From positions 1-23,450 of IMG/VR virus record IMGVR_UViG_3300042319_002983: a DNA stretch of 23,450 nucleotides; one strand, 5' to 3'. Made by a program: the position numbers and the translations under genes. The notes under the pieces were generated by a model. That model had not been told where the DNA came from, made no database searches, and was given only the letters and a program-made list of their open reading frames with translations. The stretch comes from a virus. Position 1 is the first letter of the stretch; the number at the start of each line of letters is the position of its first letter. Below are positions 11,182-15,018 of the stretch, piece after piece.

Positions 11182-12834
11182 GTGAGCACCCCCTACCGCT
11201 ACCCCGGGCGCTACCGGCAGAGCAAAACCTACCGCGGCCTGGAGCTGGTGCCGGCTGTCGCGCCGCCGGGCTTTGCTGTCGGATCGGGCATGCGCTGGCA
11301 GCTGCCCACACCGCGGCAGCGGGTGACCGCGTTGCCTTCCAGCGAGGCGACGGCGCGAGGCGCGGCGATCGCGCTGCCCTTCGAAGGTGCAACGTCTGCC
11401 GCGGCCGATGTGGCGCTTCCGTGGTCGCGGCCCGAGGCGCAGCAGGCGGCGGTGCGTGCGCCCTGGGCGCTGGCCAGCCAGCAGATTCAGGCCACCGCTG
11501 CCGCCCGCTGGGGCTTGCCTGCACCGCGCGGTGCAGCGGCCGCGCTGCCGTGGGGTGCATCGACCCCGCACGCGGAAAGCCTGGCCGCGCCGTGGCTGCA
11601 GGCCCAGCCAGCGGAAACCGCCGCCGGTCTGCGCTGGGGCGCCGCTCTGCCGCGCGAGTTGCACATCACCGCCTTCTGGCGCCAGGCCGCGGCGCGTGGC
11701 GCGTACATCGCGCTGCCGTGGGGCCCGGCCGGGCAGCGGCAAGTCGGCGTCGGCACGCCCTGGCCGATCGACCCCAACCCCGGCGACGGCTCGCCAATCA
11801 CCGTACCGATTCGGGATGCCTACATCATGCTGCCCACACTCACCGCTGTAACGCTGCCCGACCGCACGCCGCTGACCCTGCTGAATGTTCGGCTGTCGAC
11901 CGATGTCACCCGCTACGGGTGGGAACTGGGCGCCACGCTGCCGTTCGGCGAACTCGCGCTGGTCACGCCTGTCGGCCGCACGGACCCGGTCGAAATCGAG
12001 GTCACCGTCAACGGCTACACCTGGGTGCTCATGGTCGAGGGGGTGGACGATCAACGCCGCTTCGGCCTCAAGACCGGCACCATCCGCGGCCGCTCGCGCA
12101 GCAGCCTGCTCGATGCGCCGTATGCGCCGGCGCGCAGCGGCATCGCCGAAGACGCCCGCGATGCCAGCCAGCTGGCGGATGAGCAGCTGTTCGGGACCGG
12201 CTGGACGCTGGCATGGGATGCCGTGGATTGGCTGGTCCCCGGCGGCACCTGGAGCTATCAAGACGCCACCGTGCTGCAGGCCATCGGACAGCTGGCGGCC
12301 TCGATCGGCGCCCGCATCGAAACCGCGCGCACTACGCTGGATCTGGCCGTCAAGCCGCTGTACCCGGTGAGCCCGTGGGCGTGGGCCGGCGCGACGCCGT
12401 ACGCCATCCTGCCGCTGTCGATCGTGCCCGGGCTCAGCAGCTCATGGCAGGGCGGCACCAATGCCAACGGCGTGTACGTGCTGGATGGCGCCGGCAGCGG
12501 CGCGCCCGTGTTCATCACCGGTACCGGCGGCGAAGTGGAGGCGGGGCAGGTGGTCGACCGGCTGCTGGTCAGCGCCGACCCGCAGCGCGAGCGCGGCCGG
12601 ATAGAGCTGGCAAAGGCCGGCAAGATCACCAGCCACAGCCTGACCATGCTGCTGTTGCCCAGCCCCGCCGCCCCCGGCCTGATGCCACTGGGCGCCCTGC
12701 TTCAGATCACCGACCCGGCGCACGTTGACGGCGCCTGGCGCGCGCAGGTGATGGCTGTGACCATCGACGCCCAGCGCAGCGGCGGCGGCCTCGGCGTGCG
12801 GCAGACTCTCACCCTGGAGCAACACCACCGATGA
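11182..12834 (+). CDS. Tail hub-like protein with N-terminal 14-residue Trp repeats
   Basis: This is a 550-residue protein from GTG 11182. Residues 37-194 carry twelve successive units of 14 residues (one of 15), most beginning x-P/R-W, such as LPWGPAGQRQVGVG, followed by a Pro/Asp linker. From residue about 215 the protein becomes a folded alpha/beta region, with repeated strands (VEIEVTVNGYTWVLMVEGVDD) and a VLQAIGQLAASIGARIETART helix. The order of these elements resembles phage tail hub/baseplate proteins (gp27 or late-control-D type). It ends in an ATGA overlap with the next gene. The hub role is inferred from the C-terminal architecture and late position. The function of the Trp repeats is unknown. 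Confidence 0.6.
   Translation: MSTPYRYPGRYRQSKTYRGLELVPAVAPPGFAVGSGMRWQLPTPRQRVTALPSSEATARGAAIALPFEGATSAAADVALPWSRPEAQQAAVRAPWALASQQIQATAAARWGLPAPRGAAAALPWGASTPHAESLAAPWLQAQPAETAAGLRWGAALPRELHITAFWRQAAARGAYIALPWGPAGQRQVGVGTPWPIDPNPGDGSPITVPIRDAYIMLPTLTAVTLPDRTPLTLLNVRLSTDVTRYGWELGATLPFGELALVTPVGRTDPVEIEVTVNGYTWVLMVEGVDDQRRFGLKTGTIRGRSRSSLLDAPYAPARSGIAEDARDASQLADEQLFGTGWTLAWDAVDWLVPGGTWSYQDATVLQAIGQLAASIGARIETARTTLDLAVKPLYPVSPWAWAGATPYAILPLSIVPGLSSSWQGGTNANGVYVLDGAGSGAPVFITGTGGEVEAGQVVDRLLVSADPQRERGRIELAKAGKITSHSLTMLLLPSPAAPGLMPLGALLQITDPAHVDGAWRAQVMAVTIDAQRSGGGLGVRQTLTLEQHHR
11290..11763 (+). repeat. Twelve 14-residue (42-base) degenerate repeats with invariant-like Trp
   Basis: Units start at protein residues 37, 51, 65, 79, 93, 108, 122, 136, 150, 164, 178 and 192. 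The first three residues read MRW, LPS, LPF, LPW, APW, ARW, LPW, APW, LRW, AFW, LPW and TPW. The register is exact except for one extra alanine in the unit at residue 93. Nucleotide identity between units is low, so selection at the protein level, not recent slippage, keeps the period. Confidence 0.85.
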
Positions 12835-13067
12835 GCGTGAATCTGTGGGCGCAATTCGACGGCCTGTTGCCCAAGGCCCCGCGCATCGTCGCGCAAGTGG
12901 TCACCGTCGACACCGACGGCAGCACTATCGTGGAGCAGCCCGGCGGCCAGCAGTTCAAAGCCCTCGGCGGCGCAGGCCTGACCACCGGCGATTGGGTGTA
13001 CGTGCAAGCCGGCGAGATCCGCGGCGAAGCGCCGGCGCTGTCGCTGGGGGTGGCGTTGGAGGTGTGA
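12831..13067 (+). CDS. Small beta-rich tail-associated protein
   Basis: This is a 78-residue protein whose ATG at 12831 overlaps the hub gene stop (ATGA). The sequence alternates short strands and turns (APRIVAQVVTVDTDGSTIVEQPGGQQFKALG, GDWVYVQAGEI), consistent with a small OB- or SH3-like barrel. It is the last gene of the tail operon: a hairpin and a new promoter follow. A hub plug, spike adaptor or assembly factor would fit its place, but there is no signature to choose between them. It was kept as a real gene because of coupling, coding bias and regular folding pattern. Confidence 0.65.
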   Translation: MSVNLWAQFDGLLPKAPRIVAQVVTVDTDGSTIVEQPGGQQFKALGGAGLTTGDWVYVQAGEIRGEAPALSLGVALEV

Positions 13068-13075
13068 GGGTGCGA

Positions 13076-13106
13076 CCGACGAACAGTAAAAACTACCGTT
13101 CGTCGG
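13076..13106. terminator. Inverted repeat at the end of the tail operon
   Basis: Nine-base arms CCGACGAAC (13076-13084) and GTTCGTCGG (13098-13106) can form a stem. Inside it an AGT/ACT mini-stem closes on an A-rich loop, leaving an ACC bulge. It starts eight bases after the last tail gene stop, where a late-operon terminator is expected. Only a short, interrupted T-run (GTTTCTT) follows 10 bases later, so termination would be weak or factor-assisted. A protein-binding palindrome is the alternative. Confidence 0.45.
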
Positions 13107-13133
13107 CTGGTGGCGGTTTCTTGCGGCTGCCTG

Positions 13134-13162
13134 TTGACCTACTAAGTAGGTCGGCTTAGTCT
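13134..13162 (+). promoter_or_regulatory. Promoter with embedded palindromic operator
   Basis: TTGACC (13134-13139) makes a near-consensus -35. After 17 bases TAGTCT (13157-13162) makes a weak -10. A 17-base palindrome, GACCTACTAAGTAGGTC (13136-13152; 8-base arms around one A), covers the -35 and spacer, so a dimeric regulator bound there would block RNA polymerase. The first gene starts 42 bases downstream of the -10. A likely ligand is the helix-turn-helix protein encoded two genes down, but a host regulator is equally possible. Confidence 0.6.
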
Positions 13163-13170
13163 ATTCCTAC

Positions 13171-13186
13171 GCCAGCGACCGCTGGC
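13171..13186 (+). promoter_or_regulatory. Leader hairpin before the ribosome-binding site
   Basis: GCCAGC and GCTGGC arms with a four-base loop (seven pairs on paper, six sterically possible) lie in the 5' leader. The structure ends five bases before the GGGAGA ribosome-binding site of the gene at 13204. It may stabilise the leader or tune translation. Confidence 0.4.
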
Positions 13187-13203
13187 CCCACGGGAGAGAC
13201 GAC

Positions 13204-13530
13204 ATGGCGCGGTTCATTCTGATCGACAACAACAGCGGTTACATCTTCGGCGACACGGCCGACTATGCCGCCGGCATGCAAAGCGACTGGATCGCAAAGA
13301 GCGAGGCCGACCTGATCGAAGCCGCTCGTGTGCTGGATGAGCAGATCGGCGAGCATGGCCGCCAGTACACCTATCACAGCCGAAACCCACGCAGCACCGT
13401 CACAGGCTACGACGTCTACGATGCCAGCGGCGATCAGGTGGTGTGCGTGCAAGACGGGCAGGATCGCGAGATGATCGATGCGGTTGAGGCCAGCTGCGAC
13501 TACCTGGGCTTCGTCGAGGTCGTGGCGTGA
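13204..13530 (+). CDS. Unknown 108-residue protein of a prophage-end unit
   Basis: The gene starts at ATG 13204 after a clear GGGAGA ribosome-binding site and behind its own promoter. The protein is acidic and soluble with no membrane segment. It opens MARFILIDNNSGYIFGDT, then has a helical region (EADLIEAARVLDEQIGEHG), a YDVYDASGD turn and a conserved-looking VVCVQDGQDREMIDAVEA segment. The regular strand-helix pattern suggests a compact alpha/beta fold. I recall similar short proteins on other mobile elements but cannot name a family. The gene is coupled by GTGA overlap to a helix-turn-helix gene. In the lysogen it would sit beside the attachment site, a usual location for lysogenic cargo such as exclusion or host-modulating genes (inference). 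Confidence 0.7.
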   Translation: MARFILIDNNSGYIFGDTADYAAGMQSDWIAKSEADLIEAARVLDEQIGEHGRQYTYHSRNPRSTVTGYDVYDASGDQVVCVQDGQDREMIDAVEASCDYLGFVEVVA

Positions 13531-13763
13531 CTACGGCCCTTGGCGGGGCCGAGCGCCCCGCTACGGCTGTCACAGCAGTGGCGGCCTGGCAAGCCCGACT
13601 GGGGCTCACGGATCGCGCCGCGGCTGCTGCCTTGGGCATGACGCTTGACGGCTACGGCCGGCAAAAGCGAGGCCGCGATCAGCACGGCAACCCGCGCGCC
13701 GCATCGCGCGTTTTGCTGTTGGCCTGTGCGGCAATCGAGCGCGGTATTGATCCGGTCGAGTAG
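13527..13763 (+). CDS. Short helix-turn-helix DNA-binding protein
   Basis: This is a 78-residue protein from GTG 13527, overlapping the upstream stop as GTGA, so it is coupled to the unknown gene. Residues about 20-52 form a helix-turn-helix of XRE-like type: AAWQARLGLTDRAAAAALGMTLDGYGRQKRGR, with the recognition helix around TLDGYGRQKRG. A C-terminal helix (VLLLACAAIERGI) could mediate dimerisation. Many such small phage and mobile-element proteins autoregulate their own operons. The palindrome in the promoter 365 bases upstream is a natural candidate target (inference). The protein lacks an effector domain, so it could also be a Cro-like switch protein or an antitoxin-type partner for the upstream gene. 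Confidence 0.7.
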   Translation: MTTALGGAERPATAVTAVAAWQARLGLTDRAAAAALGMTLDGYGRQKRGRDQHGNPRAASRVLLLACAAIERGIDPVE

Positions 13764-14001
13764 CCTGCGGGCAACTCCGACAAAATTACGTCAGACCCCG
13801 CTAAAACCCTTGCTGTAGGCCACCTAATGGTGCCGAAGGGGGGCACAAAGCCGTAATCCGCCGCATCCCGCTTGGGCCGCCAGAAACCCGCAAACCCGCG
13901 TGGTTGCTGCCTTCGCGCGGCTGCAGGGGCTGCCCTTATCCGCCACTGTCCGCCCTGAAACCGCTAGGCTCTACGTCACGGATTACGTCAGCGGGGTGGC
14001 G
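13764..14001. other. attP: attP region (core at 13828-13843) with candidate integrase arm sites
   Basis: TGGTGCCGAAGGGGGG at 13828-13843 is the reverse complement of a tRNA-Leu 3' end: the stretch CCTTCGGCACCA is the terminal acceptor and CCA of many bacterial tRNA-Leu genes. On both sides the match to a tRNA breaks off, as expected of an attP core and not of attL or attR. The heptamer TACGTCA occurs once left of the core (13787) and twice right of it (13972 and 13984). An eight-base tandem repeat AAACCCGC lies at 13884-13899. These look like arm-type and accessory sites. The tRNA identity comes from memory of tRNA-Leu sequences, so it needs a direct comparison. Confidence 0.6.
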
Positions 14002-15018
14002 GTGGCCAGTATCAGGCGCAGGGGCAAGCGGTGGTTTGTGGAGGTGTTCGTCGGCGGCAAGCGGCGGGGCAAGAGCTTCGATACCAAGGGCGAGGCCTCG
14101 GGCTGGGCGCTGCGCATGGAGGCCGAGCTGCGCGAGCCCGAGGGGCCGCCGCGGGTGACGCTGGGCGAGGCTTGCGCGAAGTATCGCGAAGAGGTCGCGC
14201 CATCGCATCGCGGGGAGCGGTGGGAAGTGGTGCGGCTGAATCTGATCGAGCGCGGGCCGGTGGCGGCGGTGGTGCTGTCTGAGCTGACGACGGCGCGTTT
14301 GGCGGAATGGCGGGATGCTCGGCTGCGCGAGGTGTCGCCGGCGAGCGTGCGGCGCGAAATGAATCTGATCGGCAGCGTGTTGGAGGCCTGCCGGCGCGAT
14401 TGGGGGTACATCACCGTCAACCCGCTGCGGGATGTGCGCAGGCCCAAGGCGCCGCCAGCCCGGCGCAGGCGCATCAGTGCGGCGGCGATCGATGCGGCGA
14501 TGGCGGGCCTGGGCTACGTGCGCGGCGCGCAGCCGGTGACCTCAAGCCAGCGGGTCGCCGTGTGCTGGCTGCTGTGCCTGGAGACGGCCATGCGCGCGGG
14601 CGAAGTGCTGGGCCTGCGGTGGCGGGATGTGGCGCCGAAGTCGGTGACGCTGCCGCGCACCAAAAATGGCGACGCCCGGGCGGTGCCGCTGTCGACCGCC
14701 GCGCGCGAGTTAGTTGCGCTGCTGGGGCCGGGCGAGGGCGATGCGATGGTGGTCGCGGTGTCAACCGCAAGCCGTGATGCGCTGTGGCGGGCAGGGCGGG
14801 AGCGCGCTGTGGGTCGCGCGACGAAGGCGGGGGATGCGGAGCTGGCGGCGGAGCTGGCCGGGTTGCACTTCCACGACTCGCGCGCCGAGGCGATATTCCG
14901 GCTGTCGAAGCGGCTGGATGTGTTGGAGCTGGCGCGGGTGGTGGGCCACCGTGACCCGCGTTCGTTGATGCTGTATTACAATTCGACTGCGGATGAGCTG
15001 GCGGATAAGCTGGGCTAA
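14002..15018 (+). CDS. int: Tyrosine-recombinase phage integrase
   Basis: This enzyme performs site-specific integration and excision at attP/attB. From GTG 14002 it has 338 residues and opens ASIRRRGKRWFVEVFVGGKRRGKSFDTKGEA, the usual N-terminal arm-binding domain. A frame open to GTG 13900 would add 34 unrelated residues overlapping likely arm sites. GGGG at 13993-13996 suits the later start. The core-binding helices follow. Catalytic residues seen: Arg198 (ETAMRAGEVLGLRW), Lys in LPRTKNGDARAVPLS, His291-x-x-Arg294 (HDSR), His316 (GHRDPR) and nucleophile Tyr325 (LMLYY). The catalytic set is complete, so the enzyme should be active. It faces the minus-strand early operon and overlaps its last gene by four bases. 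Confidence 0.93.
   Translation: MASIRRRGKRWFVEVFVGGKRRGKSFDTKGEASGWALRMEAELREPEGPPRVTLGEACAKYREEVAPSHRGERWEVVRLNLIERGPVAAVVLSELTTARLAEWRDARLREVSPASVRREMNLIGSVLEACRRDWGYITVNPLRDVRRPKAPPARRRRISAAAIDAAMAGLGYVRGAQPVTSSQRVAVCWLLCLETAMRAGEVLGLRWRDVAPKSVTLPRTKNGDARAVPLSTAARELVALLGPGEGDAMVVAVSTASRDALWRAGRERAVGRATKAGDAELAAELAGLHFHDSRAEAIFRLSKRLDVLELARVVGHRDPRSLMLYYNSTADELADKLG
14997..15017. repeat. 21-bp direct repeat, copy 1 (integrase 3' end)
   Basis: This copy, beginning GCTGGCGGATAAGC, is identical over 21 bases to 15350-15370. It holds the last codons of integrase and, on the other strand, the stop of the 105-residue gene. Confidence 0.95.

What the first reader, a model, noticed from the sequence alone, without database searches (positions are those of the whole stretch)
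13134..13763. Two-gene, operator-controlled unit at the predicted prophage end: candidate undescribed cargo system
An independent promoter with a 17-base palindrome, a leader hairpin, an unknown 108-residue protein and a coupled helix-turn-helix protein sit after the tail operon. After recombination at attP they would be the last genes before host DNA, the typical place for lysogen-expressed exclusion, immunity or host-modifying genes. Own promoter and small regulator suggest expression in the lysogen.
Basis: inference. Interest (0 to 1): 0.7.

Follow-up and report, generated by a model that had tools for sequence, protein, structure and literature searches.

The report
Candidate anti-CRISPR gene with repressor
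A small phage cargo operon pairs an uncharacterised 108-residue protein with a repressor whose closest relatives sit directly behind a known anti-CRISPR gene, so the 108-residue protein is probably a new weapon against bacterial immunity, although no activity has been tested.

Summary
Between the tail operon and the integrase lie a 17-base palindrome (13136-13152) in a TTGAC promoter, a 108-residue ORF (13204-13530) and a 78-residue HTH ORF coupled by a GTGA overlap. The HTH protein belongs to a small XRE family whose members at 62% and 54% identity lie directly behind AcrIF11 anti-CRISPR genes, in a viral contig and in a Xanthomonas plasmid. The 108-residue protein (p108) belongs to a family with no Pfam, PHROG, NCBIfam or PDB match, found mostly in viruses. 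One relative, with a related HTH gene and an equivalent palindrome promoter, sits in a Mu-like phage at the same junction (neck gene to head protease) as acrIF1-aca1 in phage JBD30. In a sibling phage p108 is kept (77%) while regulator and operator are both replaced. Small HTH genes follow p108 in 7 of 27 loci against 0.5 expected. Best reading: an acr-aca-type operon, with an Aca-type autorepressor (likely) and p108 as a new anti-CRISPR or other anti-defence protein (probable, untested).

The parts
13076..13106 (+). hairpin after the tail operon, possibly its terminator
   Evidence: 13-nt arms 92% complementary; folds at -27 kcal/mol, z -1.7, not significant
13133..13161 (+). promoter: -35 TTGACC, 17-bp spacer, -10 TAGTCT
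   Evidence: 8 of 12 to consensus; TTGAC and AGTCTA kept in L049; TTGAC within 120 bp upstream in 14 of 27 p108 loci against 2.8 at random
13136..13152 (.). operator candidate, palindrome GACCTACTAAGTAGGTC overlapping -35 and spacer
   Evidence: the same register in L002 (GACTTGATTATCAAGTC) and a different palindrome in L049 where the regulator differs
13171..13186 (+). leader inverted repeat GCCAGC-GACC-GCTGGC
   Evidence: kept in L049; fold not unusual
13204..13530 (+). p108, candidate anti-CRISPR or anti-defence protein
   Evidence: family of relatives in viral contigs; no known family; model pLDDT 79.6
13527..13763 (+). HTH78, Aca-type XRE autorepressor, translationally coupled to p108 by GTGA
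   Evidence: 62% and 54% identical to HTH proteins directly behind AcrIF11 genes; XRE fold model
14002..15018 (+). tyrosine integrase next to the cargo slot (neighbour, not part of the operon)
   Evidence: PHROG 1 integrase E 4e-48; 72% identical to the L049 integrase, which sets the start
12831..13067 (+). last tail-operon gene, left border of the slot (neighbour)
   Evidence: PHROG 5076 E 2e-20

Best explanation
The unit is an acr-aca-type anti-defence operon. On entry of phage DNA the host polymerase transcribes p108 and HTH78 from the TTGAC promoter before repressor has accumulated. p108 inhibits a host defence, most likely a CRISPR-Cas complex, by a mechanism not yet known. HTH78 then accumulates through coupled translation, dimerises, binds the 17-bp palindrome across the -35 and spacer, and shuts the promoter, keeping a low level in the lysogen and preventing transcription from running on. 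Shown by sequence: the promoter-palindrome layout, the coupling, the family link of HTH78 to AcrIF11 operons, and the joint swap of operator and regulator in a sibling phage. Inferred: DNA binding, repression, and the anti-CRISPR activity of p108.
For: 1) Closest viral relative of HTH78 (L077, 62%) starts inside the stop codon of a gene identified as AcrIF11 (PDB 6kyf E 2e-52; NCBIfam AcrIF11 equivalog, 93.5 bits against a cut-off of 50). 2) A second case, X. citri plasmid pXAS220: AcrIF11 (6kyf E 1.7e-47) followed with a 4-nt overlap by an HTH 54% identical to HTH78. 3) L002, a Mu-like phage: p108 relative plus HTH 44% identical to HTH78 between homologues of JBD30 gp34 and protease gp37, the junction that holds acrIF1-aca1 in JBD30. 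4) L002 has TT-GACTTGATTATCAAGTC-GTG-TAGAAT, the same register as the window. Published acr-aca promoters carry an inverted repeat inside the core promoter that the Aca represses (PMC9410906). 5) In L049 p108 (77%), promoter core and leader are kept while palindrome and downstream genes are replaced. 6) With an HTH model trained only on HTHs not adjacent to p108, 7 of 27 p108 loci have a small HTH gene within 800 bp downstream against 0.48 expected; three overlap the p108 stop exactly as here (the window is one of the three). 7) p108 turned up at 26-33 viral-contig loci per scan, and in 2 of 398 sampled Pseudomonadota genomes. 8) HTH model: Aca2 Z 7.3, Aca10 Z 6.9, Aca1 Z 6.1 among the best.
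Against: No activity is known for any p108 member. No known Acr gene was recognised beside a p108 gene by NCBIfam. The HTH fold match is equally good to HigA2 antitoxin (Z 7.1). Most p108 loci lack a recognised HTH partner. Distant p108-like genes occur in 13 of 248 genomes of one bacterial family, and 1 of those 13 has Cas1 against 65 of 248 overall, so no co-occurrence with CRISPR there. p108 shows no convincing fold match.
Confidence: 0.62

Rival explanations
1. Anti-defence protein against something other than CRISPR-Cas (restriction, abortive infection, signalling-based defence), under the same Aca-type control.
For: Anti-CRISPR genes cluster with other anti-defence genes (PMC7648647); other phages carry DNA methylases in the same slot; no p108 gene found beside a known Acr.
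Against: The HTH family is twice coupled to AcrIF11 and L002 lies at the JBD30 acr junction, which favours CRISPR-Cas.
Confidence: 0.22
2. Toxin-antitoxin pair: p108 toxin first, XRE antitoxin second, autoregulated as in HigBA.
For: Gene order and XRE fold resemble HigBA (HigA2 Z 7.1); a weak relative of the HTH (39%) follows a RelE-like toxin in Burkholderia phage AP3.
Against: Many p108 genes have no antitoxin candidate; the partner is exchangeable, including non-HTH genes in L049; no toxin family match; rare in bacterial genomes.
Confidence: 0.07
3. Superinfection exclusion or lysogenic conversion gene expressed from the prophage.
For: Own promoter, late-end location next to the integrase.
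Against: Nothing specific; no membrane or secretion signal was seen by eye in the sequence (no predictor was run); relatives lie in head, replication and terminase neighbourhoods.
Confidence: 0.05
4. Transcription regulator module of the phage lytic or lysogenic switch.
For: HTH protein with operator.
Against: The pair lies at the late end beyond the tail operon, and the sibling phage replaces the regulator entirely, which a core switch would not tolerate easily.
Confidence: 0.04

Closest known systems
acrIF11 with its downstream aca-type HTH gene (viral contig L077; X. citri plasmid pXAS220)
   Same: HTH protein of the same family (62% and 54%), overlapping start and stop codons, small protein first and regulator second
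   Different: The first gene is p108, unrelated in sequence to AcrIF11
acrIF1-aca1 of Pseudomonas phage JBD30
   Same: Two small genes; HTH second; the L002 version is at the same genome junction; published repression through a palindrome in the promoter
   Different: HTH78 and Aca1 share only a weak HTH match over 23 columns (hhalign probability 67%); here the slot is after the tail operon
Aca2 and Aca10 regulators
   Same: XRE fold; model Z 7.3 and 6.9; Aca10 is a faint sequence hit (E 0.08)
   Different: No confident sequence homology; Aca2 has an extra dimerisation domain
HigBA-type toxin-antitoxin operons
   Same: Gene order and XRE fold
   Different: p108 is not a RelE-like toxin by any search and the partner is exchangeable

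Membership tests
acr-aca operon | Small phage or MGE gene followed by a small HTH gene in one operon | tested here: met
   GTGA overlap at 13527-13530
acr-aca operon | Inverted repeat inside the core promoter | tested here: met
   13136-13152 over the -35 and spacer; criterion from PMC9410906
acr-aca operon | HTH gene family physically linked to a proven acr elsewhere | tested here: met
   AcrIF11 in L077 and in pXAS220
acr-aca operon | Aca represses its own promoter | not testable with these tools
   needs reporter or binding assay
acr-aca operon | First gene inhibits a CRISPR-Cas system | not testable with these tools
   needs phage or plasmid protection assay
Known Acr families | Sequence match of p108 to a named Acr | tested here: not met
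   no match in NCBIfam, Pfam or PDB sequences; AcrIE2 profile comparison empty. Only Acr families held in those libraries were tested.
Aca1 | Sequence homology to JBD30 Aca1 over the protein | tested here: inconclusive
   hhalign probability 67% over 23 columns only
Aca2 and Aca10 | Shared fold and sequence | tested here: inconclusive
   fold Z 7.3 and 6.9, sequence E 0.08 for Aca10
Aca3 to Aca7 and Aca9 | Sequence homology | not tested
   their sequences were not at hand; HTH78 could belong to one of them
HigBA toxin-antitoxin | First gene a RelE-fold toxin | tested here: inconclusive
   no sequence match; fold search gave nothing convincing

The most novel reading that the evidence does not exclude
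p108 founds a new anti-CRISPR family that circulates among unrelated Pseudomonadota phages, with interchangeable Aca modules: each phage keeps the inhibitor but swaps regulator and operator together, as the window and L049 show.
Probability: 0.5. Interest if true: 0.7.

Novelty: new member of a known kind. Interest (0 to 1): 0.58.

Why it matters
It gives a concrete, testable candidate for a new anti-CRISPR family that is absent from the family libraries searched, plus an HTH family usable as bait for further ones (for example the unknown 158-residue protein before the HTH in X. translucens pCIX43 and the 77-residue protein in L049). The paired exchange of operator and regulator in two sibling phages is a clean natural experiment on how such operons are assembled.

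Tried and rejected
tRNA-type attP at 13828-13843: not found in 299 Pseudomonadota genomes, so dropped. Similarity of p108 to AcrIE2: fold Z 2.8, tied with unrelated thioesterases at 3.3, and no profile match, so not used. dsRNA-binding or PAS fold from Foldseek: all E above 0.4. Known Acr neighbours of p108: none by NCBIfam. Co-occurrence of p108 with Cas1 in Methylobacterium's family: none; those are mostly distant chromosomal relatives. Searches of annotated phages and plasmids with p108: empty. Leader hairpin as a special RNA element: fold not unusual. Rate of inverted repeats upstream of p108 (14 of 28 against 6.0 at random positions) is supportive, but intergenic regions in general may be richer in them; the same caution holds for the promoter counts.

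Full report
What is there. The window is a 23,450-base IMG/VR virus record. The + strand carries the tail operon up to 13067 (PHROG tail proteins and PHROG 5076). Then come the promoter with the palindrome, p108 (13204-13530), HTH78 (13527-13763, overlapping by GTGA) and an integrase. The integrase start is better placed at 14002 by comparison with the sibling L049 (72% identical). The palindrome GACCTACTAAGTAGGTC is unique in the window and rare by chance (9 of 2000 shuffles of the intergenic region). The promoter is 8 of 12 to consensus, so the standard scan missed it.

The slot is a cargo slot. Related phages with the same tail genes carry other things after the last tail gene: DNA methylases in L036, L042, L047 (read by eye from the translated sequences) and Stenotrophomonas phage S1 (annotated), and other small genes in Curvibacter phage PCA1. 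The attachment site was not located, so the claim that the pair becomes the last gene pair of the prophage is plausible but unproven.

p108 is a family of its own. Scans of IMG/VR recovered 26 and 33 loci, whereas annotated phages and plasmids gave nothing and 2 of 398 Pseudomonadota genomes matched. No member matches Pfam, PHROGs, NCBIfam or PDB sequences convincingly. The contexts differ widely: Mu-like head region, end of a tail operon, terminase region, replication region (gene identities there partly read by eye). TTGAC occurs within 120 bp upstream in 14 of 27 loci against 2.8 at random positions, and five have strong sigma-70-like promoters against 0.4. So the gene often travels with its own promoter. 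The predicted structure (pLDDT 79.6) has no convincing match.

The regulator gives the key. A scan with HTH78 and the L002 HTH found L077, whose HTH is 62% identical to HTH78. It starts inside the stop codon of a gene that matches AcrIF11 (PDB 6kyf, E 2e-52; NCBIfam AcrIF11 equivalog). A plasmid search then found the same arrangement in Xanthomonas citri plasmid pXAS220, where AcrIF11 (E 1.7e-47) overlaps an HTH gene, not listed in the gene table of that record, that is 54% identical to HTH78. The literature defines Aca proteins by this linkage and reports that their operators lie inside the core promoter (PMC9410906); AcrIF11 itself was found as a neighbour of aca1 (PMC12421852).

Independent support from p108. 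In L002, a Mu-like phage, a p108 relative and an HTH protein (44% identical to HTH78) lie between homologues of JBD30 gp34 (26%, E 2e-7) and the head protease gp37 (40%, E 2e-65). In JBD30 that junction holds acrIF1 and aca1. The L002 promoter reads TT-GACTTGATTATCAAGTC-GTG-TAGAAT, the same register of palindrome and -35 as in the window. With an HTH profile trained only on proteins not adjacent to p108, 7 of 27 p108 loci have a small HTH gene within 800 bp downstream against 0.48 expected, three of them with the same overlap (the window itself is counted among the 27 and among the three). Loci are not fully independent, so the enrichment is a guide rather than a probability.

A natural swap. 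In L049 p108 is 77% identical, in the same slot. The -35, the AGTCTA and the leader are kept, but the spacer palindrome is ACGTTAGAGCCCTAACGT, and HTH78 is replaced by a 77-residue protein and a 78-residue protein that by eye resembles a ribbon-helix-helix protein, without a Pfam match. The simplest reading is that operator and regulator were exchanged together while the effector stayed.

Conclusion. HTH78 is very probably an Aca-type autorepressor (about 0.85). p108 is probably an anti-defence protein (about 0.8), most likely an anti-CRISPR (about 0.6). Activity, repression and target remain untested. Whether HTH78 belongs to a numbered Aca family could not be decided because most Aca sequences were not at hand. 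The kinship of the regulator with Xanthomonas plasmid proteins and the tail kinship with Stenotrophomonas phage S1 hint at a host among the Lysobacteraceae; this is inference.

Noticed in passing
L125:1028-1704 (X. translucens plasmid pCIX43): An unknown 158-residue protein overlaps by 4 nt an HTH gene 64% identical to HTH78; no PDB match. A further anti-defence candidate.
   Followed up: partly
L049:5324-5790: Unknown 77-residue protein plus a ribbon-helix-helix-like protein replace HTH78 behind p108 in the sibling phage.
   Followed up: partly
L054 and L055 (one contig, IMGVR_UViG_3300037357_000066): Two diverged p108 copies on one contig, each followed by a different putative DNA-binding protein.
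   Followed up: no
L012, L025, L027 downstream of p108: A recurring 125-190 residue protein with at most a faint winged-helix signal follows p108 in three different loci; possibly another partner or effector.
   Followed up: partly
L110, L111, L112: Distant chromosomal relatives of p108 (about 102 residues); in L110 and L111 they precede a gene that by eye resembles a UspA-like protein. Function unknown; possible cellular origin of the family.
   Followed up: partly
window 13785-13794 and 13982-13991: Repeated ATTACGTCAG on both sides of the integrase leader, with similar repeats in L049; candidate integrase arm sites.
   Followed up: no
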